64,000 nucleotides of DNA from Nodosilinea sp. FACHB-131 (lineage in GTDB: Bacteria > Cyanobacteriota > Cyanobacteriia > Phormidesmidales > Phormidesmidaceae). Shown here one piece after another: positions 1-25,155 of the stretch. Position 1 is the first letter of the stretch, and every line of letters begins with the position of its first letter. The stretch spans positions 1 to 64,000 of the forward strand of contig NZ_JACJOF010000022.1 in NCBI RefSeq assembly GCF_014695395.1. Reading direction: 5' to 3'. The notes beneath the pieces are model-generated. The model did not search any database, was not told where the DNA came from, and saw nothing but the letters and a program-made list of their open reading frames with translations. A program made the position numbers and the translations under genes.

Positions 1-1372
1 ATTGCTGGTGTAGGCTTTACTCATCGCTCTCACGGGGCTGTAGTCTTCGTAATCTCAGCCTAGACCGTGTGAGCTTTTTTACTATTTAGCCGACTTCTCA
101 AACGCCCTCTAAGCATTATCGAGCGATTGCGACCCGCTACGATAAGCTCGCAGAAACCTTTCTTAGCTCGATTTACATGGCGGCTGTCGTGATTTGATTT
201 AATTGATGACACTTCCTAGAGATTATCCAGACTATCTCTTTGGTTACTTCAGATAACTTCATGTGGTTCACTCAAAGCACAGGTTAAATGGAGTATATAG
301 CCTTTACCGATCAATATCCCTCTTGTGACAGCCCAGGAGATTTGACGATTTTGTGGCAATTCAGCCTGTGAGAATCAAGGTTTCATTCGGGTTAATAGAA
401 GAGGTTTAGATCTGTTCAGCTTGAAGGCCATTTTGCCTTTAAAGGTGTATTCAGTCATAACCTGGGCCGTTTTTGAGGCAAAATTCTTTGCATTTCGGGT
501 TTTTACTCCTTTAATTAGGTTGCAAAGTGCTGCCCGCGATGTAGAACTAAAGGAATTTATCAGTTGCTTCTCCAGCCTTTCCCGTTTTCCAAGCAAGATG
601 CTCTTTAAAGAACATCAAGTATTCAAAAGATTTTCATCAAAGAAGATTTTGAATTTGCATTTAAAACTTAGGAATGCATTGCCAAACGCGATCTTGACTT
701 AATAGGAACTTGTGCTGACTTCCCTTGAATGATTAAACGCTATGGTGTTTGTATTCATGGGCCATTCCTAGGAGCTCGGATGGCTTTTAGCATTTTTAAC
801 AAAATAATTTATTTCTTAAGGATGCTTATACCTTCGTCTTGAGGAGTGTTTTTCGAGTTAAAAATTGAAAAGTTTTTAGTTTTTTCGGGCAATTGGATTG
901 ACAATCAGATCGTGTGCCCTTGTGGTGAAGTATTGCTAGAGACTTGTCAGGGAAGCAGAAAAATTTCCTCATAATCTAGGAATAATAGGCAATACCAAAT
1001 TTTAGAATCTCTTGATTCAAGAGATGAGTAACTTTTTGTCTCGTGTTTTCAGGCTAGTCAGGCTACCGAGGGATATCGCTAAAGTAGCCTTAACAGCTTT
1101 GCCTTTCTGTTTGAGTCACTCTATGCATCTGCTGCTGGCTGGTTCAAATGCTCTGCATAGAGTCATTTGTCTTGGAGGCTTTTACTTTTAGCAAGTCATT
1201 ATCTGTAAGTTATTTATCCTTAGTGATTGGCTCTATTCTCCCGTGGAAATTTCTTCTAGGAAGTTGAGCCTGTGTCAATGGCTCTATCTCCGATGAGTGC
1301 TCTACTTCATAGGACTAAATCCTGTACGAAACAGTTTTCTGCCCGTCTGTTCTCGAGTTTTGGACTTAAATT
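1..1372. other. Gene-poor AT-richer region upstream of the giant-protein operon
   Basis: No convincing coding sequence is visible. The two short overlapping antisense reading frames around 375-702 have no ribosome-binding site, no recognisable motif and an unlikely composition, so I leave them out. The stretch is visibly more AT-rich than the rest of the window and I see no HIP1 octamer in it. An inverted repeat ACTCTATGCA (1118-1127) / TGCATAGAGT (1154-1163) could form a hairpin. The promoter of the downstream operon should lie in this region; a TTGACA hexamer at 898-903 is present but has no good -10 box at the usual spacing. Confidence 0.6.
1118..1163. repeat. Inverted repeat, possible hairpin
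   Basis: Arms ACTCTATGCA and TGCATAGAGT are perfect complements separated by 26 bases. There is no T-run after either arm, so it is not a typical terminator. It lies about 210 bases upstream of the first giant gene and could be a leader structure or a chance repeat. Confidence 0.35.
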
Positions 1373-4300
1373 ATGCCCTTTAATTTGTCACTGCTCGATC
1401 TGGTCTTACCCTACGTGGTGAAAGGCGAAAACTTAGGGGCGAACCATGCACCTTTTTCCATAATCCGAGTCACGACCTTTGAAACGGCATCCGCCGCCTT
1501 TGGGGTGGTGATTCGAGGGCAGTGTGAATTTAACGGACGAGCCCGTATTGACATTGGCCAAGGGCGACTGGACGTAGAGGCCGAGGTGGATGAGGCCGAG
1601 CCTCCCTTCGACCCCAGCCGTCGGGCCCCGATTTTTGACCTGAAGGAAACCACCCTCGATTTTGAGCTGGTGGTGCCGCGGGTGGGGTCAGCCATCATTG
1701 CCGCTGGGGTCGACACCATCAGTGCCGACGGTTTTGATGCCACCCAAGCGGTGCTGGATGTGTGGGATGTGCTCCCCCTGGAAACGCCCCTGTCGGACTT
1801 CCCCTCTAGCGGCTTCCGGCTGGATCTAATCCTGAATGCGCCCTCGGTGCGTCCGCCCTTTCTGCATCCGGCCCAGATGTTGCCAAACGGTTTGCTGGTG
1901 CCCGACCCAGCCTACCAGGAGGTGTCGATTCGATTGCCCCGGCTGCGGTTTCGGTTTGCCCAAGGCAATTCTGTTGGCAGCACCCTAAGCTTTGAGCTGA
2001 TTTCCGCCGGGGTTTCGGGGCTGGACGATCCGGGGGATATCGCTGTGGCAGAGCTGGTGTCAATGGAGCCTCCCTATGCCTTTGTGGGTGGCCCCCGCGA
2101 TCGCACCGTGGGCTTTGCCTTCCGCAAGGCAGTGCTGGATTTAGCCGACGGCTACACTCCCCCAGCGGTAACCGCCAAATTCGGTTTTGGGGATGACTGG
2201 GGCGGCCTCTACCTGCCGGAAGTGCGATTCTTTCTGGCCCCGGAGGGAGCTAAGGACTTTGCCTTCGAGGCAGGGGTGGAAGATCTGCTGATCGGCTTTG
2301 GGGACGATGCTGGGGTGTCTGGAGACTTTGATCTGGCCCTGATCAACCAGGGGTCTGGGGAACTCAAGCTCTCGGCTCGGTTCTTCGACGCCGATGGCAA
2401 GGTGTATAGCCTGGAGCTTACCGGCGATACTACCGCCACCGCTCGCCTGCCGGAGCTGACCCGCATGGTGGTGGATATTGAGGGGGGCCGGGTGCCCTAC
2501 GCAACCACGGTACGAATTGATGGCGGCAGCCCTATCCAGGACCAGCCCCTGGTGGATATCGACCTGAGCGGGGCGGCGTCTCGTCAGATTGAGATTGAGG
2601 TAGTCGACTCCAGCTACCAAACCCCCATTGCGGCCAGCCTGACCATTACCGCCCAGCGGCGCATAGCCCAGGCCAGTCTGCCTACGCCGGGAGTATTCCC
2701 GGCCCCTGTCTTCCCCGCCACCCTAACACCGGACCCCGCTAATCCGATTCGGGTGGTGATGGCCAGCCAGACCGACCAGGCTGTCATTCTCACCACCGAT
2801 CCGCCGGATGCCACCCTGCGATGGAGTCTGGATGGCGATTCACCAGGCTCTCCCCGCACCAGCTTTTTGGTGCCGGTTGGGCCTGGAGTAAGCCGTACGG
2901 TGCAGGTGCGCCGTCCCGGTAGCATGGTGCCCGATGAGGTGGATTTCCACTTTTTCTATGAAGAGCCCAGGGATGTTGATCAGTCGGATGAAGCGCGACT
3001 GCTGCTTGAATACGGCAAAGCTTCCCGGGCCAGTGGGCGCAATGTGTCTACGGCCAAAGCAGCCAGCAACCTGCCCAGCGCCAATCGGGAGGGGCTGGAT
3101 CAGAACCCCCTGGTGGCCTACGATGCCTCTTTCCAGCTCGTTCCACCCCTGTCAACCCTACAGATTGTCGGGGAGGCCAGCTACGAAGATATCGACAGTA
3201 AGGACGTCTATAACTACCTGCTGGCTCGTCGCCGCGCCATTACGGTGCGGGAACTGTTGCGGGAGCGATATCCCGACAAGAACTTCGATTTAGTGATTGA
3301 CCCTGAGCCCCGTAACCCCGCTGCATATAACGGCTTTCGCGGCAATTTCACGGATTGGAAAGACAATTGGAGTAAACACGGTGCCCTCAAACAGCGGGAC
3401 TGGTGGAAGGCTACGGTAGTGCTGCCCCCGGGGTTAAATCAGCAGGAACAGCAGGCAGAAGTCACAGTACAACGCCCCGCTGCGCCGCCGCCGCCAGACC
3501 CGATTATTCCGGTGGTCGATCCGCCGCCCGTCAATCCGCCCCAGCCGCCAGGCTGGTTCCGCTCTGCCAGGCTCAAGGTGCGCATCGTGCGAGATGTGCT
3601 GATCGCAGGGGAGTTGGAAGGGGAAGTGGACCTGCAGACCTTCGCGGAAGATCATCTGCAGGCGAGTGGCCAACCGGGGGGCGAGTCGGCCCCGGAGGTG
3701 CGCACCCTGGAAGCGGGAACTCCGGTTCCGGAGGGGAACCCTGCCGATGGCATTACCAAAATTCGGCTGCTGGCCCAGGCTGACCAGGCCACCGGACGCG
3801 TCACCACCCTGATTACCCTGGGGGCCGACCCCGCCGACAAGGACGGGCTGGCGGTAGCAGGCTGGCTACCGGGCGAAGACCCAGAAGATAAGAACCTGGG
3901 GCTAACGCTGCTGGGGTCTTACCTATCCTTCTGGCCACTGCTGGTCGCCGCGACGGAATCTAACCAGGGCCGCGTGGCCGACTGGGCCTTAACCGGAACC
4001 ACCCTGGCGATTCCCGGCGCGATCGCAGCTTTGCCCTGGTTCCAAATTGAGCGGGTGATCTGGTACGGCGGGGAGTTTTTGCAGCGCGATCGCAACGGCG
4101 AGCTGGAAGCTTTTCTGCTGGCCGACCTGCGGATGGATTGTTCGGTCAACATCGGCATCGGCAGCAACTCGTCGTTGATTCGCATTCCTCAAGAAAAGCC
4201 TTTAAAGATCCGCTACAAGGCCATCGGTTTACGGTTCGGCAGCCGCGAAGACGGCAGCGAGCAGTTCAGCCTACGTCCGGTGTTCGACTCCTCCCGGGGG

Positions 4301-7300
4301 TATGACATTGACCTGATGGATGGCAGTGCCCTGGAGGTGGCCGAACCCTTCGGCAATATCCTGCGGGTGCTGGGAGCCCGGCTGTCGCGCACCAACCCCC
4401 TCACCTTTGAGGTAGACCTGGGGCTGGCTATCGACCTGGGGGTAGTCACCTTCGATCGCGCCCGGGTACGGGTTTACCTGCCCAGCTCCCCCGGAGAAGA
4501 CCTGCGGGCTCCCGAGCTCACGGCTTTAGGGGCCAGCGTGGATATTCCTGGTGCCCTGGCCGGCCAGGGGTATCTGGAAATTAACGACGGCGGCATTGCC
4601 GGCCAGATTGACCTGACCATTCGCCCGGTAAATCTGCGGGTGGCCGCTGCGATCGCCATTCAGCAGATTCCGGCGGCAGCGGGGGGTCCGGCTACTGCTG
4701 TATATGTCTCCCTCAACGTGGTGCTGCCGGTGGGCATTCCCCTGGGCAGCTCGGGCTTAGGCATTTTCGGCTTCCGGGGCATTTTCGGCATGCACTACCA
4801 GCGCAACCTGGCCATTGGGGCTGGCAGCAGCGCCCCGGCCCTGGTCTGGCTAGTGGAGTCGGACGGCCAACCCCAGGAACTGTTCGCCCCCAGCGGCACG
4901 CCCCTGTGGGTAGCCCAGATCAACCAGTGGGCCTTCGGCATCGGCATCCTGATCGGCACCATGGAAGGCGGCGTGATCATGAATCTGGACGGCACCTTCC
5001 TGCTGGAGCTGCCGGGGCCCCGGGTGGTGATCATCCTCAATGCCCGCATTCTATCGCCGCCGCCTGCGCTGGATGACATGGGTGGGGCCGGGGGCATTCT
5101 GGCCATTATCGAAATTACCCCCGAGCACTTCCTAATCGGCATTCTGGCCACCTACGAAATTCCCCAGCTGCTGACGGTCAAAATTCCGGTGGAGGCGGTT
5201 TTCCCCTTCGGTACCCCCAGCAACTGGCACATCTATCTGGGCCAGCGATCGGACTACGGCGAACCCATCGAGGTGAACGTGCTGGGGCTCGTGCGGGGCA
5301 CTGGCTACCTGATGCTGCGGGGTAACGGCCTGAATGCCTTTGACGCCAAGGGACTGCCGGAAATCGAAGGGTTTGCCATCGGCATAGGGGCTGCCGCCGC
5401 CTATGTCTGGGGCAATGTGGATGCCGGGCTGTACCTGCGGGTGGGCGGCAGTTTGGATGCCGTGGTCGGCTTTGACCCCTTTATTCTGGGGGGCACCTTC
5501 GAACTCAGCGGTGAGCTGCGGCTGTTCATTATTTCTATTGGGGCTTCGGCCTCTCTGACAGTAATCGTGCGTCAGACCAGCGAAGACAGCACCGACCTAC
5601 AAACCTACATCAAGGGAGAGGCCTGCGGCCATATCGACTTCTTCTTCTTTGAGGTGGAGGGCTGTGTCTCTATCGAAATTGGCTCTGAAGAGCCCGCCCT
5701 GCCGCCGCCCGCCCTGGTGAAAAAACTCTCCCTCAAGAGCCGCACTCCGGCCCTGGTGCAAGGAACCGCCGTCGATCGCCCGGTAGACGGCAGCCTGGGG
5801 GATGGTCTGGAAAGCAACAACGCACCCACGGGGAATGCCCTGAACAACCTGGTAACGGTGCCCATCGACGCCATTCCCATCCTGTCGATGATCATGCCTC
5901 CCGTAGCTACTGGTCTGACCTTTTTAGGAGAAACCGTGCCCGACCTGTCTGGGGTGCCCGCCGATGGGTTCATTCCTCGGGGCGAAGAGCGCTACCGCTA
6001 CGACCTCACCGCAGTCACCCTGGAACGGATGGAGGAATTGGGCGGCGACGTCATCGGCAGCGGCACCCCCGCCCGCTGGTGGACGTTGAGAAACACCACC
6101 GAACCCAACGAAACCGCCCAGCTGGCCCTGCTCACCTGGGAACCCACTCCCGCCACCAAAGCCATCGAAAAGAGCGAGGTGCTGAAGGAATCCATTGAGC
6201 ACCACTGGGGCACCGCCTGTCAGAACGCGGCTCCCCCAACTCCGGTGCTGTGGACCTTCCTCTACGAACCCCTGGGACCATCCCCCGTCGGTTGGGAGCT
6301 GGAAGGCATTGCCCTGCCCGATCCACCCGATACCCGCCGTTCCACCGACCCCGATACTACCCTGCATGTGACGGAACGCTGGCGCTCTGGTAATCCTCAA
6401 ATTGACAACTGGCGCGGCATTCCTCCGGCGGTGGTGATCGGAGCGCTGGTGCCCTGCAAGCCGAATCTCACCCCAGAACCGTCGACACCGCCGCCCATGA
6501 TTCCCTCGGTGATCGGTATCCCTGACCTGGTGGTGGGGGGTCGCGGTCCCATTGGCCTTACCCCCGGCCCAATACCGGGTAGTCGAGTGGATCGCGCCGA
6601 TCCGGTCTTTACCCGACTGGTGCCCGATAACCAGGTGACCCCGTTCCGCATTACTCCCCGGCTCCATGAAAAGGTCGCCAAAACCCAGCCCATGACTGCC
6701 GAACCCCTTGACCTCACCCAGTTAGACCGGCTCAGGGCCAGGGGACAGTCCCTCAGTCGGGCGGCGCTGGTGCAGGCTACCCAGACATTCCCGACTCCCA
6801 CAGCGCGAGCTGTGGGGGTGACCCAGCCGCAATGCGATGTCCGCATCCTGGCTGCCCCCGTTTTCGACGATGGCCGCCCGGTAGTCTTTGGCGACCAGAG
6901 CCGCAGTCAGGAAATTGCCGAGGCGCTAGAGGCAGCCGGGGTGACCCACGGCCCCCTGAACAACGTGGTCAGGCTGCACACCGGCCCCTTCCAGGAAACG
7001 ACCCTACTGCTGTTGGTGCAGCGGGTCTTCCTGGTGCAGAAGCGGTTCATTGTGCGCACAGCGGATGCGGAGGGCCATGAGCTGACTCGGGTAGTTCCGA
7101 CCCCCAGCGATTGGATTAATGTCAAACCCCTGCCCGCCCTTTGGACCGACCCCTCCAGCCCCTGGAGCAATTCCATTGCCCACTTGCAAACCTACCTGTC
7201 GACCCTACCGGGGCTAGCGATCGTGGTTTCCATCAATGGGGCTGGGGCTGACCATATTGAACTGGGCCTTCTGCCTCGCGATCAAACGGCTAAGGAACCC

Positions 7301-8587
7301 TTTGCCCCGCCCTACTATGTGGCGGCGATCGAGAGCCTGCGCCGGTCGGAAGTGGAGCGCCACGATTGGGACAATTCCCAGATCAGCCAGGAGCGGGAGG
7401 TGATTACCTCCATTCTGGGACCCGACAGCACCACCAATGCCCTGCTGCATCCCAGTTCTCTGTATCGGGTCAGCGCCACCTGGACCGGCCAGCGAGCCAG
7501 CGGCGGCGAGGAGTCTGATACCCAGCATTTCTGGTTCCGCACCGATGCTGAAGCTCCCCGTCGGCTCGACCCCTGGATGCTATTGACCCTGCCCAATGAC
7601 GGAGAGCCGTTTGTCTTCGGGGCCGAACCCCTGCGCCTGGTGTTCAACACCCACGATGTCGATCGCATCTATGCCGCCTACGGCAAGGCGCTGCGAATTC
7701 GGCTGCAGGCGGCATCGGCCCACCATCCCCAGCCGCAACCAACGGTGCCCCATCCCTTCCCAATTAATCCCCTGACGTTGCAGCCCATTGCGGCCGCCAT
7801 TCTTTCCCCTTGGGAAGAGCTGCTGGAGGAAGTCGTTAAAGAAACCGGCCCCTGCATTCCCATCGATGAGAACCGTACCCGCCACAGCTCCGTGACGGTG
7901 CCCATTCCCCTCGACCCTTACACGGGCTACATCCTGGATGTGGAGATGGTGGATACCGGTGCCCCTGAGGATGAGGCGGGCGTCAGCGTCTACCGTCGCC
8001 ACTTCAGTACCGGGGCCTACGCCACCCTCGAGGAGTTTGCGGCTTCTCTGCGGGCGGTGAAGGACAGTGGTCGGGCTGTGGCTCCCGGCAGTATGGCCGC
8101 CATTCTTGGCTACTTCGGCGGACGCCACCCCCAGGGGCCAGAGCTGGATGAACAACTGCGCAGCCATGGGCTAGAAGCCATGCCAGCCCCCACCCGTCCC
8201 CGCATCATCACGTTCTGGGAGCAGGTGGGGAACAATCCCCCCCAGCCTACGGCGGTGCTGGTAGATGCGGCAGAACCCCTGTGGCGCACCCGGCTCTACC
8301 CTGCCCAGGTGGTCGATGACACTAGCCTTATTACGTCAGAACGCTGGCAGTACGAGCCCCAGGAATGGCTGCAACTGGAGGCGACTTCCGGCTCCCTGGT
8401 ACCGGCGGGCATGATTCGGGCTCCTGGTCTGCAGCGGGCCCTGGTGGTGCTGCCCCCCAACAGTCGCAGCCAGCGCTTGCGGCTGGATCTGGTCACTCCC
8501 GAATTTCCCGAACCTTATTTAGACCTGCCGGAGCGGCGGCACACCGTTGTGGACATCACCTTTGTTAAAGCGCCTTGGGAAGAGTAA
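1373..8587 (+). CDS. Giant beta-rich protein with OmpA-like segment (2404 aa), unknown function
   Basis: Not recognised as a named protein. There is no signal peptide or N-terminal membrane segment. Residues about 1-470 are rich in alternating hydrophobic/acidic strands. Residues about 460-530 look like an Ig/chitobiase-C-type fold (DPPDATLRWSLDG). Residues about 580-690 resemble an OmpA/MotB peptidoglycan-binding domain (IVGEASYEDIDS, then YLLARRRAITVRELL), followed by a proline-rich linker at about 703-728. The central third (about 1030-1460) is a long series of glycine-rich beta segments such as LGIFGFRGIFGMHY, reminiscent to me of the DUF6603 family of large beta proteins; that assignment is from memory and unproven. 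It is first in a tandem set with the next two genes, 12 bases before the second. HIP1 sites inside the gene suggest long residence in the host. The ATG at 1373 has no clear Shine-Dalgarno sequence, so the start is tentative. Confidence 0.85.
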   Translation: MPFNLSLLDLVLPYVVKGENLGANHAPFSIIRVTTFETASAAFGVVIRGQCEFNGRARIDIGQGRLDVEAEVDEAEPPFDPSRRAPIFDLKETTLDFELVVPRVGSAIIAAGVDTISADGFDATQAVLDVWDVLPLETPLSDFPSSGFRLDLILNAPSVRPPFLHPAQMLPNGLLVPDPAYQEVSIRLPRLRFRFAQGNSVGSTLSFELISAGVSGLDDPGDIAVAELVSMEPPYAFVGGPRDRTVGFAFRKAVLDLADGYTPPAVTAKFGFGDDWGGLYLPEVRFFLAPEGAKDFAFEAGVEDLLIGFGDDAGVSGDFDLALINQGSGELKLSARFFDADGKVYSLELTGDTTATARLPELTRMVVDIEGGRVPYATTVRIDGGSPIQDQPLVDIDLSGAASRQIEIEVVDSSYQTPIAASLTITAQRRIAQASLPTPGVFPAPVFPATLTPDPANPIRVVMASQTDQAVILTTDPPDATLRWSLDGDSPGSPRTSFLVPVGPGVSRTVQVRRPGSMVPDEVDFHFFYEEPRDVDQSDEARLLLEYGKASRASGRNVSTAKAASNLPSANREGLDQNPLVAYDASFQLVPPLSTLQIVGEASYEDIDSKDVYNYLLARRRAITVRELLRERYPDKNFDLVIDPEPRNPAAYNGFRGNFTDWKDNWSKHGALKQRDWWKATVVLPPGLNQQEQQAEVTVQRPAAPPPPDPIIPVVDPPPVNPPQPPGWFRSARLKVRIVRDVLIAGELEGEVDLQTFAEDHLQASGQPGGESAPEVRTLEAGTPVPEGNPADGITKIRLLAQADQATGRVTTLITLGADPADKDGLAVAGWLPGEDPEDKNLGLTLLGSYLSFWPLLVAATESNQGRVADWALTGTTLAIPGAIAALPWFQIERVIWYGGEFLQRDRNGELEAFLLADLRMDCSVNIGIGSNSSLIRIPQEKPLKIRYKAIGLRFGSREDGSEQFSLRPVFDSSRGYDIDLMDGSALEVAEPFGNILRVLGARLSRTNPLTFEVDLGLAIDLGVVTFDRARVRVYLPSSPGEDLRAPELTALGASVDIPGALAGQGYLEINDGGIAGQIDLTIRPVNLRVAAAIAIQQIPAAAGGPATAVYVSLNVVLPVGIPLGSSGLGIFGFRGIFGMHYQRNLAIGAGSSAPALVWLVESDGQPQELFAPSGTPLWVAQINQWAFGIGILIGTMEGGVIMNLDGTFLLELPGPRVVIILNARILSPPPALDDMGGAGGILAIIEITPEHFLIGILATYEIPQLLTVKIPVEAVFPFGTPSNWHIYLGQRSDYGEPIEVNVLGLVRGTGYLMLRGNGLNAFDAKGLPEIEGFAIGIGAAAAYVWGNVDAGLYLRVGGSLDAVVGFDPFILGGTFELSGELRLFIISIGASASLTVIVRQTSEDSTDLQTYIKGEACGHIDFFFFEVEGCVSIEIGSEEPALPPPALVKKLSLKSRTPALVQGTAVDRPVDGSLGDGLESNNAPTGNALNNLVTVPIDAIPILSMIMPPVATGLTFLGETVPDLSGVPADGFIPRGEERYRYDLTAVTLERMEELGGDVIGSGTPARWWTLRNTTEPNETAQLALLTWEPTPATKAIEKSEVLKESIEHHWGTACQNAAPPTPVLWTFLYEPLGPSPVGWELEGIALPDPPDTRRSTDPDTTLHVTERWRSGNPQIDNWRGIPPAVVIGALVPCKPNLTPEPSTPPPMIPSVIGIPDLVVGGRGPIGLTPGPIPGSRVDRADPVFTRLVPDNQVTPFRITPRLHEKVAKTQPMTAEPLDLTQLDRLRARGQSLSRAALVQATQTFPTPTARAVGVTQPQCDVRILAAPVFDDGRPVVFGDQSRSQEIAEALEAAGVTHGPLNNVVRLHTGPFQETTLLLLVQRVFLVQKRFIVRTADAEGHELTRVVPTPSDWINVKPLPALWTDPSSPWSNSIAHLQTYLSTLPGLAIVVSINGAGADHIELGLLPRDQTAKEPFAPPYYVAAIESLRRSEVERHDWDNSQISQEREVITSILGPDSTTNALLHPSSLYRVSATWTGQRASGGEESDTQHFWFRTDAEAPRRLDPWMLLTLPNDGEPFVFGAEPLRLVFNTHDVDRIYAAYGKALRIRLQAASAHHPQPQPTVPHPFPINPLTLQPIAAAILSPWEELLEEVVKETGPCIPIDENRTRHSSVTVPIPLDPYTGYILDVEMVDTGAPEDEAGVSVYRRHFSTGAYATLEEFAASLRAVKDSGRAVAPGSMAAILGYFGGRHPQGPELDEQLRSHGLEAMPAPTRPRIITFWEQVGNNPPQPTAVLVDAAEPLWRTRLYPAQVVDDTSLITSERWQYEPQEWLQLEATSGSLVPAGMIRAPGLQRALVVLPPNSRSQRLRLDLVTPEFPEPYLDLPERRHTVVDITFVKAPWEE

Positions 8588-8599
8588 GGAGAGACGATC

Positions 8600-11500
8600 A
8601 TGGCCAGAATTATTGACCCCGACCGGCTAATGCTCATGGGCGCTGTGGTGGATTGGTCCACAGTGCGGCGGCGGCAGGTTCAGTCTCCCCGGGCAGAAGC
8701 CATTGCCGGACAGCGAAATATTTTCGACTGGCAGGGCAAAATTACCACCCGACTGGTGCAGTTGCGGTGGCTGGTGAATCCCAAGGAGGCGGGCTACCCA
8801 ACGGAGCCTTTTCGAGTGTGGCGGCGACCGGCGATTCCCATGGCGAAGGAACGGGAGATTACGCCCCAGGTGCTGAATGCCACCGGTTTTCGGGTGATTA
8901 CCTGGGACGAACCTCAAGCCATGATTCGTGCCAGGTTTGACGTACTAAACATCAATGGTCTGGTGTATGGCTACGCTGGAGCACCGTTGACCTCTGCCCT
9001 GGTTGGCTTTGCCCCCCTGCAACCCGGCACCCGTACCGTAAAGTTTAGCGGCCCGGCGGTCCAGTCCCTGGTAGTATCCCCCAGCGTTAATCTACTGTCC
9101 CTGGTCGGCATTAAAGACGATGCCGCCAATGACGACACTTGGCAGCTCGTAGAAACCGTGGGGTTGCCCACCGGTAGCTCCTGGAACGGAGTGTTTGACC
9201 TAGACCAGCCCCAGGGTTTAGTGGGCAACCTGATGTCGCCTCCCCAGGCCGCCCTGGATCGCTTCCGGCGGGGGGCCCCCTTCTATGGCTGGGAGCTGGA
9301 AATGGCCCCAGGAGTTACAGCACCCCCTTGGCAGCTGGCCGACCCCAACGCCCTGCTGACCACCCTGCAGGATAACCTGATGGACCCCCTGCGGCAAATG
9401 ATTCAGACTCTGCCGCCCCGCCGCCATCACACCTTTGAGCTGCTTCAAGATTTGCGGTTGCAGGGCATCGGGCAACCCGCCACTACCCGGTTTTCGCCCA
9501 TGCAGACCCTGACCCTGGGGGCGGCTACCGACCCGCTACTGTCTTTAATGACTGGCTTTGGCACCGCCCTGGAGGATCTGGACCTGCCACCCCTTTTAGA
9601 TGGGCAGTACTTTAGTGATCCTCTACGTAGTGATGTCGACTACATGGTGACCGCTCGCTATGAGGGAGGTCTGAGTGGCCGGGGCCGAGCAGTAGAATAT
9701 GCCGCCATCCTGTTTGCCCCATTCATTGCCGGTACGCCGCTGCCTCCCACCAATCTCAAGGCCTCCAGCGACGGGTTGCGGGCTCCCAATACGGTGGATC
9801 AGCCCTGGCGGGGAGTGGTGCGCCTGAGCTGGGATAAAATTCCTGACAACATCCCTCTGCGGGTGAGCAGCTACGCTCTGGCCCGCCAGCAGCAGGTACC
9901 GGCGGGGGGCGTCGTCGCCTTGATGGAACCCCGGCAGAACGATACCGCTCTACAGCCGATCAGCGCCACCACCAGCCCTGAAAAAGAACAAACTACCGGG
10001 CAAATTCAGGCTTTGGATGAAACTTACCCGATCGCCAGCAGCGCCAGCCCTAACAGCCTGCGGTATGGGGTAGCCCACCAGGATTTGTTTGGAGTATGGA
10101 GCTCCTGGACTGTGGCCGGGCAAAATCTGCAGGAACCAGCCGTACAAAAGGTGACGATTCTCTCTGCCCGGCTGGACATGGAACTGCCTGCCAGCGGTTC
10201 AATTTGCCCCGCCACCCTGGTAATTGACCTGAGCTGGGACTGGTCGGTGCGATCGCTGGAACGACTGGAGCTGGTCGGGCGGCTCTACCCCCAGGCGAAA
10301 CGAGGCGACAACCCGCCCCCTGGCCCCCTACCGGGAAATCTGCAAAAGGCTTTGGGGGATGCCATGGCCGGGCTCTATAGCATCATCTTTGGCGGCAGCA
10401 GCAGCGGCACGGTTCCCCCCGGCGACACGGTCAATTACCTGGCGGAGGACGGTAAAACCTTCCTGTCTGGGCCTTCTGTGCTGTCGGGTCCTCGCCGCTA
10501 CCGGATTATCATCACCAGCTTTAACCTCAACTTCGCCGCCACCGGGCACATCGGGCTGGCCCTGTGGGTACGGGGGGTAGAACATCGGGCTCCCCAGCGG
10601 GTCGGGGCTTGGTCGTCAGAACCCCTAGTGGTTTCGGCTTCTGACCCCCGTCCTCCGATAATCGACATCCAGCATGAAAATGTGCTGCTCACCAGCGTGG
10701 CCGACGCTAGCGGCGAACACCATGCCCGTCTTATCTGGCCGACGGTGGCTGGGGCGACGGGCTACTTTATCTACATGACCAGCGAGGCAAAGCTGAGGAG
10801 CGATCGCAACCTGCCCCAGCCCCTGCTCAGCCAAACCCTGTCGGAACGACTGGTAGAACTGCGGGATGCCTTTGGGGCCAATCCACTCGCCTGCCGTCAA
10901 TCCTTTACTCGCCTGAATGATCAGCCCATAACCGGCACCAGCACCCAGATCACCCTGCCCCGGGGTACCAAAGAAATCTACCTTTACATAGTGATGGGTA
11001 TCAGTGCCGGTCAGGTGGAATCGGACTGGCCCAGTCTGGCCGAACCGCTGGAGACCCGACGACGGCGACCGATCGCCTATGCCGCTCCCCAAATCGCCGC
11101 TCCCGCCCCCCCCATTCTGGAGGTACGACGCCTGCTGGATGACAGCGTCACCCCGCCTGTCTACCGGGCTGGGGTACAGATTCAAACCCGTCCTGGAGCG
11201 GTGGTATCCCAGGTTGACCTGCATCGAGTGTGGGTACCGGAAGCCTCCCTAGAGCTGGATACCATGGGACCTGCCGTGGCCACCATTACCGGTTCCGTTG
11301 CCTCCTGGATGGTTTCCCCTACCGTCAGCGATGCCCCCGGAGAAGCCCAACCCATTGGCATTGTCAGCGGTACCGATAGTCCCGGCGGCTCCTGGCGTCC
11401 CGTGTTTTACCGGGCCGTCACCTGGTCCGTCGACGATTTCACCCGGGGGATTTATCAGGGCCGCTCTTTACCCAGCGCTGCCCAGCAGCTGGTGTTGCCC

Positions 11501-12283
11501 CCCGCCAACCCGCCCGATCTGTCGGCACTAAGCAGTGCCTTTTCGGGCGGAGCTAGCAGCGTAGACATCACCTGGCTCAGCGCTGCTCCCCTGGAACCAA
11601 CCCCCCTAGGAGCCCACCGCCTGCAGGTCGAAGCCAAACTGGTGGATGAGGACAGCAGCTTAACGTCACTGCTGAGCTTCCCGACCGTTCCCGGAGAAAA
11701 TACCCTGCTCCAGGTGCCATCCTCTCCCTCTGCCGCTTTCAATACCCTCTGGCGAGAACCCGGCCCCAACGGCACGACCCGCTACACCCTGCGGCTGCGG
11801 CGAATCGACATCTCTGATGCCATCAGAGTTAGGGTGCTGCTCAACGACCCCCTGGGCCGGGCCAGCGAGGAAACCCTGACGGTGGCTCCCGTCGAACTCT
11901 TGCCGAAGCCCGTAATTTTGTCACCCCAGGTTACAGAGCTACGGAGTAATCGCTTCCAATTCAGCTTTCAAACCTCGGTTCCCCTGGAGACTAACCAGGG
12001 TCCCTACATCGTTGAGGCCACGCTACGCCCCGAGTTACAGATACCCCAAGGACAGCGCAGCCTTCTGGCCAGCACAGGTACAGAACTGGCCCTGAACAAG
12101 ATTCCGATTGAAAGTCAGAACGACAATCCCTGGAGCGATCGCGCCGCCATCCCCATGCGCCGCAGCCGCCCCGCCCGAGGTAATACTACGCTCACCCTCT
12201 ACATCAAGAGTCCCGGACAGTTGAGGGTGATACTCCGCTCCCCCGATGGCCGCACCGCCACCCACGGTAGGAGGTTGTCGTAG
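8600..12283 (+). CDS. Large fibronectin-III-like repeat protein (1227 aa), unknown function
   Basis: Not recognised by name. The ATG follows an AGGAGAG ribosome-binding site and lies 12 bases after the stop of the 2404-aa gene, so the two are almost certainly co-transcribed and probably coupled. There is no signal peptide and no transmembrane segment. Several stretches have the Trp/Tyr spacing of fibronectin type III modules, for example around residues 390-440 (VVRLSWDKIP then SYALARQQ), about 685-740 (ARLIWPTVAGATGYFIYMT) and about 980-1030 (VDITWLSAAPLEP). This suggests a multi-domain binding or scaffold protein. Similar composition and codon use to its neighbours point to a common history. 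Confidence 0.85.
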   Translation: MARIIDPDRLMLMGAVVDWSTVRRRQVQSPRAEAIAGQRNIFDWQGKITTRLVQLRWLVNPKEAGYPTEPFRVWRRPAIPMAKEREITPQVLNATGFRVITWDEPQAMIRARFDVLNINGLVYGYAGAPLTSALVGFAPLQPGTRTVKFSGPAVQSLVVSPSVNLLSLVGIKDDAANDDTWQLVETVGLPTGSSWNGVFDLDQPQGLVGNLMSPPQAALDRFRRGAPFYGWELEMAPGVTAPPWQLADPNALLTTLQDNLMDPLRQMIQTLPPRRHHTFELLQDLRLQGIGQPATTRFSPMQTLTLGAATDPLLSLMTGFGTALEDLDLPPLLDGQYFSDPLRSDVDYMVTARYEGGLSGRGRAVEYAAILFAPFIAGTPLPPTNLKASSDGLRAPNTVDQPWRGVVRLSWDKIPDNIPLRVSSYALARQQQVPAGGVVALMEPRQNDTALQPISATTSPEKEQTTGQIQALDETYPIASSASPNSLRYGVAHQDLFGVWSSWTVAGQNLQEPAVQKVTILSARLDMELPASGSICPATLVIDLSWDWSVRSLERLELVGRLYPQAKRGDNPPPGPLPGNLQKALGDAMAGLYSIIFGGSSSGTVPPGDTVNYLAEDGKTFLSGPSVLSGPRRYRIIITSFNLNFAATGHIGLALWVRGVEHRAPQRVGAWSSEPLVVSASDPRPPIIDIQHENVLLTSVADASGEHHARLIWPTVAGATGYFIYMTSEAKLRSDRNLPQPLLSQTLSERLVELRDAFGANPLACRQSFTRLNDQPITGTSTQITLPRGTKEIYLYIVMGISAGQVESDWPSLAEPLETRRRRPIAYAAPQIAAPAPPILEVRRLLDDSVTPPVYRAGVQIQTRPGAVVSQVDLHRVWVPEASLELDTMGPAVATITGSVASWMVSPTVSDAPGEAQPIGIVSGTDSPGGSWRPVFYRAVTWSVDDFTRGIYQGRSLPSAAQQLVLPPANPPDLSALSSAFSGGASSVDITWLSAAPLEPTPLGAHRLQVEAKLVDEDSSLTSLLSFPTVPGENTLLQVPSSPSAAFNTLWREPGPNGTTRYTLRLRRIDISDAIRVRVLLNDPLGRASEETLTVAPVELLPKPVILSPQVTELRSNRFQFSFQTSVPLETNQGPYIVEATLRPELQIPQGQRSLLASTGTELALNKIPIESQNDNPWSDRAAIPMRRSRPARGNTTLTLYIKSPGQLRVILRSPDGRTATHGRRLS

Positions 12284-12380
12284 TTGCACTGCGGCCAACA
12301 GCTAGAATCTAGCGGATTTTGCTGGGCCTGGTGCCGCGAATGCACCTTCCCAAAAGCACTCACCCCCAAAAACCCCACTC

Positions 12381-15300
12381 ATGGTCAACATCATTCCCCC
12401 CCAAACCATCCTCACCCCCGCTGGAGCTGCCGAAGAACTGCAGGCCGAGGGGCTTGATGCCCTGGGCTTGACGGTACCCAACCTGAGCCCTGCCTGGGCC
12501 GAGGCAACCCCCACTACGGGAGACTATGACGACACTGCCCTGACCCTGACGTTGACCAACGTGTTGGCTCCCTTTCGCGGCATTCGCACCTACGAACTCA
12601 CCCCCAGTTTCTGGAGCGACAGCAGCGGTGCTCCCCTACCCGGTCCGATTGCCGTCCTGAAGCTACATCCCGAAGCGGCTCGTCGGCTGGAACGGTTGGT
12701 AGCTGCCCGCTACGGCAATCCGGCAATCCGCCCGGTGCCCGTAGCGATGGTGCTGCAGGGTATTACGCCCCCCGCGTCTTTGCCGGTGCCCGACTGGTTT
12801 CTGGCCGGAGAACAGATGCTCGCGGGCACCGCCACCGTCTCCTTTCACGATGGCCGGGGCCTGCCCGTTGACCCTATTGCCGTAGCCGCTATGGCCCTCG
12901 ACCTGCTGACCTGGCGGCCGGCCCTGCAACTTGCCGCTGCCGGTGCCCCAGCCGTGGATCAACCCGGCGGATTGAACGGCATTGCCACTCTGGCCAACGG
13001 CATCCGTTGCCACGTGATTAACCCCCACGGCTGGGGCTATCAACCCACCCAACCCACCGGTCGCTTGAAGGTCATCGATGCAGGCAGCAGCGAAATCGCC
13101 CAGGTACCCGATGGCGGCCTGATTGATTGGCAGGCCGATCAGCGCCTGGGCCGCTCTGACACCGATGAAGCGGCCGATGAGGCCAAACCTCTCTACTGGG
13201 GCTGGGCCACCAACGGGGAGTTGACTCGGGAGCCACTGTCTCCGCCTGCCGGGGGTTCCCTGAGCCGGCAGTTTTTGCGGGTAATGGCGGTGGAACTCGA
13301 CTGGCATCTGCTGGGCAACCGCAGCGACAGTCCAGTGGCCACTATTCCCCCCGACGACGGCACCACTCCCGACTTTTTACTGCCCACAGTACGGCCTGCT
13401 GTGCCCAACTTTGACTACCTGGCGGATGGCATGGATGTGCTGGGAGCCACTGCCGAAATTGCCGCCGGGTTTCCAGCTCCATCTCGGGCTGGAGTCTTTG
13501 CCCTGGCAGTTTCTCCCGCCCTTGACCAATCCCTGGCCGTCCCTGGTGGAACAGGGGGCATAGGTCGTTGGCCAACGTTCCCACCGCCCAACACCAACGC
13601 CGCCCTGCCCGCTAATCTTGACCCCATTGCCGTCCTCACCGGCACCTGGCGAGACGGCGGTGATGGTCCGGAGGCCGATCTGGATGTGATTCTCACCCTC
13701 CCCGCCAATACCCTGCCGGAGGGCACTCACCTGCGTATCTATCCCCGTCGCTTTCTCGAAATTCAGGCCATCAGTGGTGAGCAGCCCTCCTTTGTGCGGG
13801 CCGATGGCGGTGCGGCTCTTGCTGTTTCTGGCACCCCTATCCAGGTGCTCCTGACGAATCCGTTTAACCTGGAACCCGCCGAAGCCAAACCTAACTCCGC
13901 CCGGTTAGACATAGACCTGGTGCTGACCAGCCGCACCGGCCAGCGACGGTTGTTTTCCGTAGTCAGCGTCACTCTGACGGACCCACCCGCTCCGTGGACC
14001 AGCAATCTGGGCACTTTTGGCGGCTTGGAGCTACTGAATCAACCCGCATTCACGGCTCTGTTTAGCGCCTTCAGCACCCGCGCCGTTGCCCCTACTCCGC
14101 TGTTTGGCATTCCCCGCACCTTCGTCCCCCCTTCGGGTGATCCAGCTAACATCGCAGACCTGGCTCGCCGTTTAGCCAGCGAAACCCAACCCCGCCAGGG
14201 GCCCAGACTACCCACCCAGGCTCGGTTCGAAACCATTCTGGCCCTAGGCACTTCCCCCGCAGTCGATGCTCAGCTTGACTGGCAGGCGGTGCTGACCGGG
14301 GCCCGCTGGCAGTGGGAAAGCCGCTGTTCCCATCCAGAACTGGGCAATCCTGGTAATCCTGCCGGACCCGATGTCCATGCCACCGGCATTCGAGCCGATG
14401 GTCGACTGGCCTACGATCTGGCCCTCCACGCCCTAAAACGATCTCAGGCAATAATTCCCACCGCCCCCGATTCCCCCGGTTGGATTGTTACCGCCGGGGG
14501 CGACAACTGGAATGCCCCCCCGGCCGACACCATCGGCACGGTAGCCGCCGCTATGCTGGAAACCATTGCCCCCTTCACCGACACGCCGGAATTAGGCTTG
14601 GGTTTCATTCCTATCCCTCAGCCCGGTGACTCGGTACAGAACACCGTCAACCAGATTGCCAATGACCTTGGGCTGACTCCGCCCACCGTAACCGTGGGCA
14701 ACGAAGAAGAGATTCGCCCCCGGGTGCAGCGGGAAATCATTACCGCCAAGTTCGGCCAGCGGGATGCGCTCTGGGCTTTGCGTCGGGCTCTGGGGCAGGC
14801 GCGGGAATTCATCTATATTGAAAGCCCCATGTTTGCCAGCACGGCTCGATCCGATGGGCCTCCTCTGGCCCACGAAATTGACCTGGTGGAGGTCATCCGT
14901 CAGGGACTACAGGACAATTCCCGCCTGAAAGTGATCCTTTGCCTGCCGCGACTGCCCGATTTCGATTCCGCCCGAGCCAACTGGGTGCGCACTGCCCTGG
15001 CCCATCGCCGAGAAGCCATTGAAACGCTAACGACTCAAGCCCAGCAGCGGGTAGCGGCGTTTCACCCCATCGGCTTTCCGGGGCGCTCGGCGGTCCTGCG
15101 CTCGACGACCGTGATTGTGGACGATATCTGGTGCCTGGTGGGAACCAGTCACTTTCGGCGGCGGGGCATGACCTTCGACGGCGGGGTGGATGTGGTGAGT
15201 ATGGATCGCTCGATTGCTGAGGGATATTCCGCTGGCATCAGCCGTTTTCGGCAGGAACTGATGGCGGCCAAGCTGGGCATCGATGTGCCCACTGTCCCGG

Positions 15301-15527
15301 ATCTGGCCTCGGCTCTGTGGCTGCGCCTGCAGCAGCCGGAAGCCGCCTTTGACGCCGTTGTCGATCTCCTGCGACAGGGTGGATTGGGACGGTGTACTCC
15401 AATCTGGGTCGGTCCCAATGATACAACCGTCATTCCTCAAGACGCTGATGTGGCTGACCCTGATGGGGTGGATGAGGACGGTAGTAATCTGCTGGCTCTG
15501 TTGGGACAACTGCTCCTGGAGGGGTAG
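12381..15527 (+). CDS. Large protein with degenerate phospholipase-D-like C-terminus (1048 aa)
   Basis: Third gene of the tandem set, 97 bases after the second, with no good Shine-Dalgarno before the ATG. Residues 1 to about 780 are beta-rich and unrecognised. Residues about 783-990 resemble a PLD/Cls-like lobe: FIYIESPMF corresponds to the usual IEN-x-YF strand, and VIVDDIWCLVGTSHFRRRG matches the strand and GS-x-N loop after an HKD motif. At the HxKxxxxD position (about residue 907) the sequence is R-S-T-T-V-I-V-D, so the catalytic His and Lys are replaced by Arg and Thr and only the Asp remains. No second HKD is evident. It is therefore probably not an active phosphodiesterase, but a binding or structural derivative. 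No signal peptide is visible. Confidence 0.85.
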   Translation: MVNIIPPQTILTPAGAAEELQAEGLDALGLTVPNLSPAWAEATPTTGDYDDTALTLTLTNVLAPFRGIRTYELTPSFWSDSSGAPLPGPIAVLKLHPEAARRLERLVAARYGNPAIRPVPVAMVLQGITPPASLPVPDWFLAGEQMLAGTATVSFHDGRGLPVDPIAVAAMALDLLTWRPALQLAAAGAPAVDQPGGLNGIATLANGIRCHVINPHGWGYQPTQPTGRLKVIDAGSSEIAQVPDGGLIDWQADQRLGRSDTDEAADEAKPLYWGWATNGELTREPLSPPAGGSLSRQFLRVMAVELDWHLLGNRSDSPVATIPPDDGTTPDFLLPTVRPAVPNFDYLADGMDVLGATAEIAAGFPAPSRAGVFALAVSPALDQSLAVPGGTGGIGRWPTFPPPNTNAALPANLDPIAVLTGTWRDGGDGPEADLDVILTLPANTLPEGTHLRIYPRRFLEIQAISGEQPSFVRADGGAALAVSGTPIQVLLTNPFNLEPAEAKPNSARLDIDLVLTSRTGQRRLFSVVSVTLTDPPAPWTSNLGTFGGLELLNQPAFTALFSAFSTRAVAPTPLFGIPRTFVPPSGDPANIADLARRLASETQPRQGPRLPTQARFETILALGTSPAVDAQLDWQAVLTGARWQWESRCSHPELGNPGNPAGPDVHATGIRADGRLAYDLALHALKRSQAIIPTAPDSPGWIVTAGGDNWNAPPADTIGTVAAAMLETIAPFTDTPELGLGFIPIPQPGDSVQNTVNQIANDLGLTPPTVTVGNEEEIRPRVQREIITAKFGQRDALWALRRALGQAREFIYIESPMFASTARSDGPPLAHEIDLVEVIRQGLQDNSRLKVILCLPRLPDFDSARANWVRTALAHRREAIETLTTQAQQRVAAFHPIGFPGRSAVLRSTTVIVDDIWCLVGTSHFRRRGMTFDGGVDVVSMDRSIAEGYSAGISRFRQELMAAKLGIDVPTVPDLASALWLRLQQPEAAFDAVVDLLRQGGLGRCTPIWVGPNDTTVIPQDADVADPDGVDEDGSNLLALLGQLLLEG

Positions 15528-15541
15528 AACCTGAGTAACTG

Positions 15542-15563
15542 AGAATTCTAATTTTAGGATTCT
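15542..15563. terminator. Weak hairpin between convergent genes
   Basis: AGAATTCTAA and TTAGGATTCT form an imperfect stem with a very short loop between the end of the 1048-aa gene and the end of moaE. A long T-run is absent, so terminator activity for either side is only plausible. Confidence 0.4.
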
Positions 15564-15586
15564 AATGCTTGGGGAAACTTACTTTC

Positions 15587-16051
15587 CTATTCACAGCTGC
15601 CAATACTCACCCAGCTGGTAGAGCCATCTACCCATATCTCTTTCTTCCAAATCGGGGCGTTGTGTTTGAGGGTGTCGATCGCATACTGGCAGGCCGCAAA
15701 CGCCTCAGCCCGGTGGGGGCAGCCCACCGCTACCAGCACGCTGATGTCGCCCACGGCCAGTTTGCCAGTGCGGTGGTGAATCACTACGCGGGTGGCATCG
15801 GCCCAGGTGTCGCGAATTTGGACAGCGATCTGCTTAAACACTTCCAGAGCCATGGGTTCATAGGCCTGGTATTCCAACGCCACAACGGCTTTGCCCTCGC
15901 TGTTGTTGCGCACCATGCCGCTCATCACCACCACGGCACCGTTGGCGGGGTCATCGGCCAGACCATAGACCTCGTCGAGGGACAGAGGGGCAAAGGTCAC
16001 CCGCAGGCTGTCAGCGGGTGCTACCACAGATTTCGGCGTAGCAAGCGGCAT
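15587..16051 (-). CDS. moaE: Molybdopterin synthase catalytic subunit MoaE
   Basis: MoaE, with MoaD-thiocarboxylate, inserts the two dithiolene sulfurs into precursor Z to give molybdopterin in the cytoplasm. At 154 aa it has normal length. The family signatures are present: GAVVVMSGMVRNN near the N-terminus, LEYQAYEPMA, VGCPHRAEAF and the C-terminal HNAPIWKKE with the active-site lysines. moaD is not adjacent. It converges with the giant-protein operon and diverges from the ydcF-like gene. Confidence 0.96.
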   Translation of the reverse strand: MPLATPKSVVAPADSLRVTFAPLSLDEVYGLADDPANGAVVVMSGMVRNNSEGKAVVALEYQAYEPMALEVFKQIAVQIRDTWADATRVVIHHRTGKLAVGDISVLVAVGCPHRAEAFAACQYAIDTLKHNAPIWKKEIWVDGSTSWVSIGSCE

Positions 16052-16256
16052 AAAGAATTCATAAATAACAACAGAGACGGCACCGGCTTAACAAAAATTC
16101 GTCTACCGTAGCTGTCGGTTACAGTGTGCAGCCATCCTAAGCAGGGCAGCCAATCGGGGCGGGCCATCCAGTATTGGGGCCGACATCCCCTGCGGCCAAT
16201 GACTTGCATTATAGGGTGGGCATCCTTGCATCTACAGTCTAAGCCGGAGGTATACC

Positions 16257-17018: not shown

Positions 17019-17066
17019 GTGAGTGGGCGGGTAGGTGAGTGGGCGGGTGGATGGGTGGATGGGTGG
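17016..17066. repeat. G-rich short tandem repeat (GGGTGGAT/GGGTAGGTGAGT type)
   Basis: Degenerate tandem copies of GGGTAGGTGAGTGGGCG and GGGTGGAT run from the stop codon of the ydcF-like gene toward the end of pyrB. Related arrays occur at 53325-53434 and, within a reading frame, at about 61850-61906. Confidence 0.75.
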
Positions 17067-17088
17067 TTGTCACCTTGCCCATCTACTC

Positions 17089-18754: not shown

Positions 18755-19085
18755 ACCTATAACAAAGCACAAAAGATTGAGCACAAATGGATGGAAACAC
18801 CTAACGAGCTCAACCTATGACACTCCGGATCGTCCTAACCCGTCTGTCATAGCCGCGTTTGATACAGTCAAAACTCCTGTTCTGCCGTTGCTAGGTTTGA
18901 TACTGCACCAACGAGATCGCGTCTTTTAAGAGAATTTTGGTAGAGAAGTTTCCTTAACCCAAGCTGACGTTTTCATCAGCATTAAAACTTTAAAGTCTCA
19001 TACCTAAGCTGGTTGTGGCACCCATCATATTCTCCTGATATCAATTGTTTTAGCAATATCGTATCGGTGACTAAAAGATTAAAAC
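18755..19085. other. Intergenic region, no gene seen
   Basis: No reading frame of interest. An inverted repeat CTATGACA (18815-18822) / TGTCATAG (18845-18852) lies 60 bases after the lipoprotein stop and may form a terminator-like hairpin without a clear T-run. It separates two genes whose 3' ends face each other. Confidence 0.5.
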
Positions 19086-19604: not shown

Positions 19605-19824
19605 AGTTTCCTCCTTAAGTAGAGTTGGCTAAATTGCTCGAAGTGTTTGATGGGATTACTCAAAGGGGTGGCAGCAAGCGCGATCGCCCATTACCACCCA
19701 CCGGCAGACTGAGGTTACAACACCTAGACCAGAGGTTTTGCAGGACCGCGATGATCCGACAAAGCATGACGCACTACCGTTTGAGAGGCTGACACCTGCT
19801 GATCCAGGCCGGAAGGCGGTCGAT

Positions 19825-24411: not shown

Positions 24412-24482
24412 CGTCTTAAACTAGGAGATAGGGGACTAGCAGGGAATGCTTCTCCTATCTCCCTTCTACGGAGCAGTGTGGA

Positions 24483-25149: not shown

Positions 25150-25155
25150 GCGGCC

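What the first reader, a model, noticed from the sequence alone, without database searches (positions are those of the whole stretch)
1373..15527. Uncharacterised three-gene locus of giant leaderless beta-rich proteins
Three genes of 2404, 1227 and 1048 aa, all on one strand with gaps of 12 and 97 bases, fill 14 kb. None has a signal peptide; they combine an OmpA-like segment, Ig/FnIII-like modules and a dead PLD-like lobe. There are no phage, transposase, secretion or polyketide genes beside them. HIP1 octamers inside the genes argue for long residence rather than a fresh import. The set looks like parts of one large assembly, perhaps a surface or wall-associated particle or an intracellular scaffold, and I know of no described system with this composition.
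Basis: partly seen in the sequence, partly recalled or inferred. Interest (0 to 1): 0.75.

Follow-up and report, generated by a model that had tools for sequence, protein, structure and literature searches.

The report
Conserved three-gene giant protein cassette
Three very large genes lying side by side in this bacterium turn up together in unrelated bacteria too, so they very probably build one shared, mobile and still undescribed protein assembly, in which part of a phospholipase-type enzyme survives only as a degenerate fragment.

Summary
Genes A (2404 aa), B (1227) and C (1048) are there, with gaps of 12 and 97 bases; none matches Pfam or NCBIfam above cut-off, or PHROGs or PADLOC at E up to 1.

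A-B-C in order recurs in a Rhodospirillales MAG and on a Rhizobium tropici megaplasmid; A+B without detectable C in Paracoccus aminophilus.

A's core is a remote DUF6603 relative with an OmpA-like insert. C ends in a lone second phospholipase-D lobe whose HKD motif is replaced alike in four of four copies; in Mycetohabitans and G805 that place is held by two-lobed PLDs that keep the catalytic H and K.

Mechanism is inferred: an A-B scaffold with an exchangeable third part, probably acting at or outside the envelope. Both structure predictions failed.

The parts
1..110 (-). end of a repeated element carrying a transposase-like gene whose start codon maps to window position 24; the contig begins inside it
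   Evidence: 96% match to G000:C37:31793-31902, where a 265-codon transposase-like ORF follows; three weaker copies (74-75%) at the ends of contigs C13, C43, C44. That the ORF is a transposase is read by eye, not tested with Pfam.
1373..8587 (+). gene A, 2404 aa, giant
   Evidence: homologues in L004, L006, L007, L005
3158..3376 (+). A: OmpA-like segment (residues about 596-668)
   Evidence: profile of A1 against PDB sequences: OprF 5u1h E 1.6e-4, then PA0833, YiaD, Pal and others; Pfam OmpA below cut-off in L006 and L007 A, no hit in window and L004 A; GEAS in place of the usual G-x-x-D in 3 of 4
4127..5743 (+). A: remote DUF6603-like core (residues about 919-1457)
   Evidence: hhalign A4 vs seven DUF6603 domains of the host's phylum, probability 85.4, E 5.8e-6, 365 columns in order; A1 vs A proteins of Mycetohabitans/G805 probability 99.8, E 1.3e-28 over 476 columns
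8588..8591 (+). GGAG, ribosome-binding-site-like, in the 12-base A-B gap
   Evidence: read from sequence
8600..12283 (+). gene B, 1227 aa
8762..8830 (+). B: N-terminal module LRW...GYPTEPFRVWRR (residues 55-77)
   Evidence: HMM searches in a pool of 2291 ORFs
12381..15527 (+). gene C, 1048 aa
13596..13991 (+). C: Ig/FnIII-like beta-sandwich (residues about 406-537), tentative
   Evidence: best-modelled stretch of a poor model (block pLDDT 25-74), best Z 6.1, rmsd 3.1, 90 aligned
14772..15290 (+). C: lone second PLD lobe (residues about 798-970)
   Evidence: hhalign probability 99.4, E 4.5e-21; lobe-2 HMM E 9.1e-24, no lobe-1 match
15099..15125 (+). C: degenerate HKD motif RSTTVIVDD (H to R907, K to T909, D914 kept)
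   Evidence: same replacement in L004, L006 and the L005 fragment

Best explanation
A, B and C are the subunits of one multi-protein assembly encoded by a rare, horizontally moving cassette. Shown: the genes travel together and keep their order in distant bacteria; A and B form the recurring pair; the third gene varies (dead-PLD giant here, a two-lobed PLD in Mycetohabitans and G805, a protein without match in Azospirillum oryzae, none seen in Paracoccus aminophilus and G789). Inferred: A (DUF6603-like core plus OmpA-like segment) is the scaffold, B the long adaptor that docks through its conserved N-terminal module, and the third protein the working end. In this lineage a PLD was fused to a new N-terminal part of about 780 residues, lost its first lobe and the catalytic His and Lys of the second, and now binds or braces rather than cuts. 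As none has an evident signal peptide and I saw no secretion genes in the neighbourhoods examined, the assembly most likely forms in the cytoplasm and acts at the envelope or after release by lysis or a transporter encoded elsewhere.
For: Same trio and order in L004 (52/44/57% identity) and R. tropici pRtrCIAT899c (29/26/32%); A+B in P. aminophilus. B-PLD-A order in Mycetohabitans L014, L015 and B-PLD-PLD-A in G805; B-A in G789; A-B in both Azospirillum. B-type neighbour at 10 of 12 A loci. N-terminal HMMs link the two B groups, E 0.001-0.09 one way, 0.009-0.37 the other. Homology of A across groups E 1.3e-28. C holds a PLD second lobe, E 4.5e-21; its H and K are replaced alike in 4 of 4 C copies, while 10 of 10 standalone PLD rows, 4 of them from cassettes (two 98% identical), keep H-x-K in both lobes and a full second HKD. 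In DUF6603 loci of the host's phylum, 3 of 8 hold a tail-collar, S74 or LamG protein, that is likely binding parts.
Against: No interaction, transcript, location or activity was tested. Both AlphaFold runs failed (pLDDT 30.2 and 33.1). B homology across groups rests on a short module and one weak stretch (hhalign A3 vs A10 E 0.0014, probability only 17.9). In the HMM test a spurious ORF outranked L016, the first HMM did not reach Mycetohabitans or A. thermophilum B, and the second did not reach the window's own B (E up to 1); the A. thermophilum B call rests on the motif by eye. The four cassette PLDs lack the first-lobe Asp at its usual place, so their activity is not certain. Giants beside DUF6603 genes of the host's phylum were not shown to be B. 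The OmpA segment lacks its usual Asp in three of four.
Confidence: 0.45

Rival explanations
1. The cassette is a toxin or effector module carried by a contractile injection system or similar phage-tail-like device encoded elsewhere in the genome; the third gene is the payload or tip.
For: No own secretion genes seen; PLD as third gene; tail-collar and S74 domains in some DUF6603 loci of the host's phylum. A phage-sheath gene is present in the window's genome and in 3 of the 4 other A-bearing genomes tested, against 43 of 194 sampled genomes of the host phylum.
Against: Sheath genes are on other contigs than the cassette. Among host-phylum genomes with A or DUF6603 the count is 4 of 8, p about 0.07 on an approximate table. 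A sheath may be a prophage. The background in the other phyla was not measured. In the window's own lineage the PLD is dead.
Confidence: 0.15
2. A cytoplasmic or periplasmic scaffold or storage body with no role outside the cell.
For: No evident signal peptides; very large chains; no secretion genes among the annotated or scanned neighbours.
Against: PLD, LamG, tail-collar and S74 proteins beside relatives point to contact with lipids, glycans or other cells. Patchy spread fits an accessory, niche-related trait.
Confidence: 0.2
3. A lipid-handling machine: A's long beta-rich core binds or bridges lipids and the PLD (or its dead remnant) senses or trims phospholipid.
For: A PLD or a PLD-derived lobe is the commonest third part; alternating hydrophobic residues in A's core (read by eye).
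Against: No fold evidence; no lipid-transfer structure among the 19 PDB sequences matched by A; the PLD substrate is unknown.
Confidence: 0.12
4. Three unrelated large genes that happen to be neighbours, or decaying relics.
For: L005 carries only a broken, fused remnant.
Against: Order kept in three genomes and A-B pairing at ten of twelve loci; long open frames at 26-57% identity; the dead motif itself is conserved. L005 has 2.66x coverage in its title and may be misassembled.
Confidence: 0.03

Closest known systems
DUF6603 (Pfam PF20248), function unknown
   Same: A's core aligns in order with seven DUF6603 domains of the host's phylum, E 5.8e-6; two of four Mycetohabitans records annotate the A homologue as DUF6603
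   Different: No direct Pfam match at E up to 1 for the A proteins, nor for the Mycetohabitans protein itself; the DUF6603 model finds nothing in the host, and the A-core profile finds none of the seven DUF6603 genomes; larger, with OmpA-like insert
Phospholipase D superfamily, two-lobed HKD enzymes (PDB PLD1, PLD2, PLD alpha 1)
   Same: C residues 798-970 are a second lobe; two-lobed PLDs hold the third-gene place in Mycetohabitans and G805, and the M. endofungorum one matches PLD1 at E 4.8e-14
   Different: C has no first lobe and its His and Lys are replaced, so it cannot be a standard PLD enzyme
OmpA/Pal peptidoglycan-binding domain (PF00691)
   Same: sequence profile match over about 70 residues
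   Different: sits inside a giant without evident leader, below Pfam's cut-off or unseen by it, usual Asp missing in 3 of 4
Contractile injection systems and tailocins
   Same: leaderless subunits and the idea of an exchangeable tip or payload; tail-collar and S74 parts in some distant DUF6603 loci
   Different: no phage family in the trio and no sheath or baseplate family among ten downstream ORFs

Membership tests
DUF6603 (PF20248) | score above Pfam's cut-off of 27 bits | tested here: not met
   no hit at E up to 1 for A of the window, L004, L006, L007; no match in G000
DUF6603 (PF20248) | collinear remote homology over most of the domain | tested here: met
   hhalign probability 85.4, E 5.8e-6, 365 columns; shallow alignments, Neff about 2.5
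Phospholipase D superfamily | two lobes | tested here: not met
   lobe-2 HMM E 9.1e-24 in C; lobe 1 not found (only C_L006 at E 0.42, at residues 838-897, inside the lobe-2 region)
Phospholipase D superfamily | HxKxxxxD catalytic motif | tested here: not met
   R-x-T-x4-D in window, L004, L006 and L005
OmpA-like peptidoglycan-binding domain | family score and binding Asp/Arg (roles recalled) | tested here: inconclusive
   profile match to OprF E 1.6e-4; Pfam 18.9 and 13.8 bits against 27.2 in L006, L007, none in window and L004; Asp kept only in L007, an Arg follows in all four
Contractile injection system | sheath, tube and baseplate genes in the locus | tested here: not met
   no PHROGs match in the trio; ten ORFs within 15587-28012 hit other families; sheath genes lie on contig C7. 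Upstream of the contig end is unseen.
Tc-type toxin complex (considered for the three sizes) | RHS/YD repeats and TcA/TcB domains (recalled) | tested here: not met
   no such Pfam or NCBIfam family at E up to 1 in A, B, C
Fibronectin type III / Ig giants | recognisable FnIII or Ig domains | tested here: inconclusive
   no Pfam hit; one Ig-domain PDB sequence for B at E 0.73; beta-sandwich in C with best Z 6.1; B not folded

The most novel reading that the evidence does not exclude
A previously undescribed class of self-contained, leaderless three-part protein machine, moving between phyla, with a DUF6603-like scaffold, a giant adaptor and a swappable working end, in which one lineage has turned a phospholipase D into a conserved dead binding part.
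Probability: 0.25. Interest if true: 0.85.

Novelty: categorically new. Interest (0 to 1): 0.6.

Why it matters
DUF6603 proteins have no known function (Pfam name; no paper in the searched library holds the term). A cassette that joins a DUF6603-like scaffold to a phospholipase D, or to its dead remnant, and is kept together in distant bacteria gives a concrete partner, an activity to assay and named isolates (Rhizobium tropici CIAT 899, Paracoccus aminophilus JCM 7686) in which to test what these giants do.

Tried and rejected
AlphaFold of A residues 728-1457 and of C with three-row alignments gave pLDDT 30.2 and 33.1; no fold claim is made from A. The VIA comparison of C speaks only for residues 406-537 and gives generic beta-sandwiches.

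tblastn of the A. oryzae A homologue against phages found nothing; viral contigs gave no relatives with A1 or A5. tblastn of B against plasmids found nothing at E 0.01, although R. tropici B is a relative in a direct comparison, so B searches are insensitive; R. tropici B found only itself. C found no relative in genome contigs, although L004, found there with A, encodes one at 57%; so these scans miss relatives and the rarity figures are lower bounds.

The hit for A in G101 (38%, residues 184-272, one stop inside) was set aside as chance; the ORFs around it are not A-like.

Idea that giants beside DUF6603 genes of the host's phylum are B: not supported (hhalign E 0.64 and 0.27). PLD hits in Shinella, Paracoccus, Roseomonas, Streptomyces and Rhizobium acidisoli are standalone PLDs without A- or B-sized neighbours in the six loci opened; the other plasmid PLD records were not opened.

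Rfam at 1-17000: no match. Promoter scan of 900-16300: none found; terminator-like sites no more than in shuffles. Literature: six searches, nothing on these genes; only listings and abstract starts were seen, no paper was opened.

Full report
WHAT IS THERE. Three long genes on the + strand, A 1373-8587, B 8600-12283 and C 12381-15527, with gaps of 12 and 97 bases. None reaches a curated cut-off in Pfam or NCBIfam, and none has a PHROGs or PADLOC match at E up to 1. No N-terminus looks clearly like a signal peptide on a hydropathy scan, though A's first 45 residues (2.03) are not far below a signal-like neighbour (2.30). The ten downstream ORFs scanned, 15587-28012, hit ordinary families (MoaE, DUF218, aspartate/ornithine carbamoyltransferase, Usp twice, aldo/keto reductase, AhpC/TSA, spermidine synthase, arginase, RsmB); the rest of the window was not scanned. 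The host is taken to be a cyanobacterium from its 55 HIP1 octamers in 48 kb (meaning of HIP1 recalled); no tool names it.

UPSTREAM END. The window begins at base 1 of contig C15. Bases 1-110 recur at contig C37 (96%) and, at 74-75%, at the ends of contigs C13, C43 and C44. At C37 the repeat leads into a transposase-like ORF (by eye) whose start codon maps to window base 24. So a probable insertion sequence lies about 1.3 kb before A, and anything beyond it is unseen.

THE SET IS CONSERVED. A found two loci among the genome contigs, L004 (Rhodospirillales MAG) and L005 (Dehalococcoidia MAG), and R. tropici CIAT 899 pRtrCIAT899c and P. aminophilus pAMI4 among plasmids. L004 holds A, B, C in order at 52, 44 and 57% identity; R. 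tropici holds A, B, C in order at 29, 26 and 32%; P. aminophilus holds A and B but no C detectable at E 0.001. L005 holds a frameshifted A cut off at residue 1849 and directly followed by C residues 740-1047; its title gives 2.66x coverage, so decay and misassembly cannot be told apart.

A WIDER FAMILY. The P. aminophilus A found giant proteins in four Mycetohabitans records (best E 2e-7; annotated DUF6603 in two) and an Azospirillum oryzae protein (E 2e-4). In M. endofungorum and M. rhizoxinica the genes stand as 1322-aa giant, phospholipase D, A homologue. The A-core profile found 3 of 151 genomes in the phylum of the Dehalococcoidia MAG (that MAG, G805 with two loci, G789), 1 of 349 in the phylum of L004 (L004's own genome), 1 of 386 in the host's phylum (the host itself) and 1 of 82 in the order of G805 (G805 itself). 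G805 has giant, PLD, PLD, A in a row; G789 has a B-type giant and A. Both Azospirillum plasmids have A followed by a B-type gene; in A. thermophilum A is annotated as two CDSs. Counting loci with an A homologue (window, L004, L005, L006, L007, L014, L015, L016, L047/L052, L048, L049, L054), a B-type neighbour is present in 10 of 12; L005 is the remnant and L048 starts 1.1 kb before A at a contig end. The B calls at L016 (weak HMM score) and L054 (motif by eye) are the softest. Two further Mycetohabitans records were not opened and are not counted.

HOMOLOGY ACROSS GROUPS. A: hhalign of A1 against the Mycetohabitans/G805 proteins gives probability 99.8, E 1.3e-28 over 476 columns. B: an HMM from the N-terminal modules of window, L004, L006 and L007 B, run on 2291 ORFs from 28 loci (ORFs with over 30% X dropped), ranks after its own members L049 (E 0.0012), L052 (0.012), one spurious ORF overlapping A (0.016) and L016 (0.088); it does not reach L014, L015 or L054 at E up to 1. 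An HMM from L014, L052, L049, L016 and L054 ranks, after its members and L015, L004 (0.009), L006 (0.36) and L007 (0.37); it does not reach the window's B. The rest of B is barely alignable (hhalign E 0.0014 at probability 17.9), with BLAST of L004 B against the M. rhizoxinica giant at E 2.8e-6 over 169 residues. So B homology is likely, not proven. C: only its PLD lobe is shared with the third genes of Mycetohabitans and G805.

DOMAINS OF A. Positions 597-668 match OmpA/Pal domains (5u1h E 1.6e-4); Pfam OmpA hits L006 and L007 below its cut-off and the window and L004 not at all. The usual peptidoglycan-binding Asp is replaced in window, L004 and L006 (GEAS) and kept in L007 (GRCD) (role recalled). 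The core, residues about 919-1457, is a remote DUF6603 relative: probability 85.4, E 5.8e-6, 365 columns in order against seven DUF6603 domains, while direct Pfam scans of A and even of the Mycetohabitans homologue, and the DUF6603 search of the host, find nothing.

DOMAINS OF C. Residues 798-970 equal the second lobe of phospholipase D (probability 99.4, E 4.5e-21). The first lobe is missing, and H and K of the second HKD are R and T in window, L004, L006 and L005. Ten of ten standalone PLD rows aligned keep H-x-K in both lobes and the second HKD complete; four are from cassettes (L014 and L015 98% identical, two from G805), and these four lack the first-lobe Asp at its usual place, as does L011. 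They are probably, not certainly, active. A replacement kept in C copies that are 32-66% identical to the window's is not random decay: the dead lobe has a kept role (inference). A weakly modelled beta-sandwich lies at 406-537.

MOBILITY AND AGE. Copies sit on plasmids of R. tropici, P. aminophilus, Mycetohabitans and Azospirillum; but these were found by searching a plasmid collection, so the share on plasmids is biased upward. Transposase genes lie near those of R. tropici (ISL3 family, 278 bases from A), Mycetohabitans, A. oryzae (by eye) and the window. The three genes have GC 62.1% against 57.0% for the rest of the window, GC3 within the range of seven other local genes, 7 HIP1 sites (about 0.3 expected) at 0.49 per kb against 1.13, and none in C. 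This fits an import old enough to be partly adapted (inference).

DISTANT COUSINS. Canonical DUF6603 genes occur in 7 of 386 genomes of the host's phylum. Of eight loci opened (L025-L032), three hold a giant of about 1330 aa (L029, L030, L031), six a protein of about 630-670 aa that looks alike by eye, and three a tail-collar (L030), S74 (L028) or LamG (L027) protein; neighbours in L026, L031 and L032 were not scanned with Pfam. The giants are not demonstrably B, so this is a parallel, not membership.

INJECTION SYSTEM LINK. A phage-sheath gene is found in the host (contig C7) and in G386, G387 and G805 but not G789; 3 of 7 canonical DUF6603 genomes have one; the background in the host's phylum is 43 of 194, the host included. 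The excess is small and unlinked in position, so the idea stays a rival.

HOW IT MOST LIKELY WORKS. Shown: co-inheritance, order, dead second PLD lobe, varying third gene. Inferred: A and B are scaffold and adaptor, the third protein the working end, which in this lineage binds rather than cuts; assembly in the cytoplasm, action at or outside the envelope. The claim 'one system' is strong (my estimate 0.9); the mechanism is weak (0.45 for the whole statement, less for location).

NOVELTY. No described system with this make-up was found. The claim rests on the four protein-family libraries and on six searches of open-licence papers, which hold no paper with the terms DUF6603 or PF20248. Subscription papers and preprints were not searched. 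'Categorically new' is said of the gene set; a known kind of function could still emerge once a structure or location is known.

Noticed in passing
window 1-110: The contig starts inside a multi-copy transposase-like element, about 1.3 kb upstream of gene A.
   Followed up: yes
L005 10001-16353: The Dehalococcoidia MAG copy is a frameshifted A joined directly to the end of C, with B and most of C gone; either a decayed cassette or a low-coverage misassembly.
   Followed up: partly
L025-L032: Canonical DUF6603 genes of the host's phylum sit beside giants of about 1330 aa (3 of 8 loci), a protein of about 650 aa (6 of 8, by eye) and tail-collar, S74 or LamG proteins (3 of 8); possibly a cluster type of its own.
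   Followed up: partly
L053 (G000 contig C7, 1-20000): The host genome holds two phage-sheath genes with a large baseplate-like gene (the latter by eye), as in contractile injection systems.
   Followed up: partly
L016 21265-23622: The third gene of the Azospirillum oryzae set (786 aa) matches no Pfam family and none of the C or PLD proteins compared.
   Followed up: partly
L054 21018-23957: In Azospirillum thermophilum a gene annotated as a calcium-binding protein follows the A-B pair on the same strand.
   Followed up: no
L006 36347-37267: A Rhizobium tropici ISL3-family transposase gene begins about 280 bases from the likely start of A, on the opposite strand.
   Followed up: no
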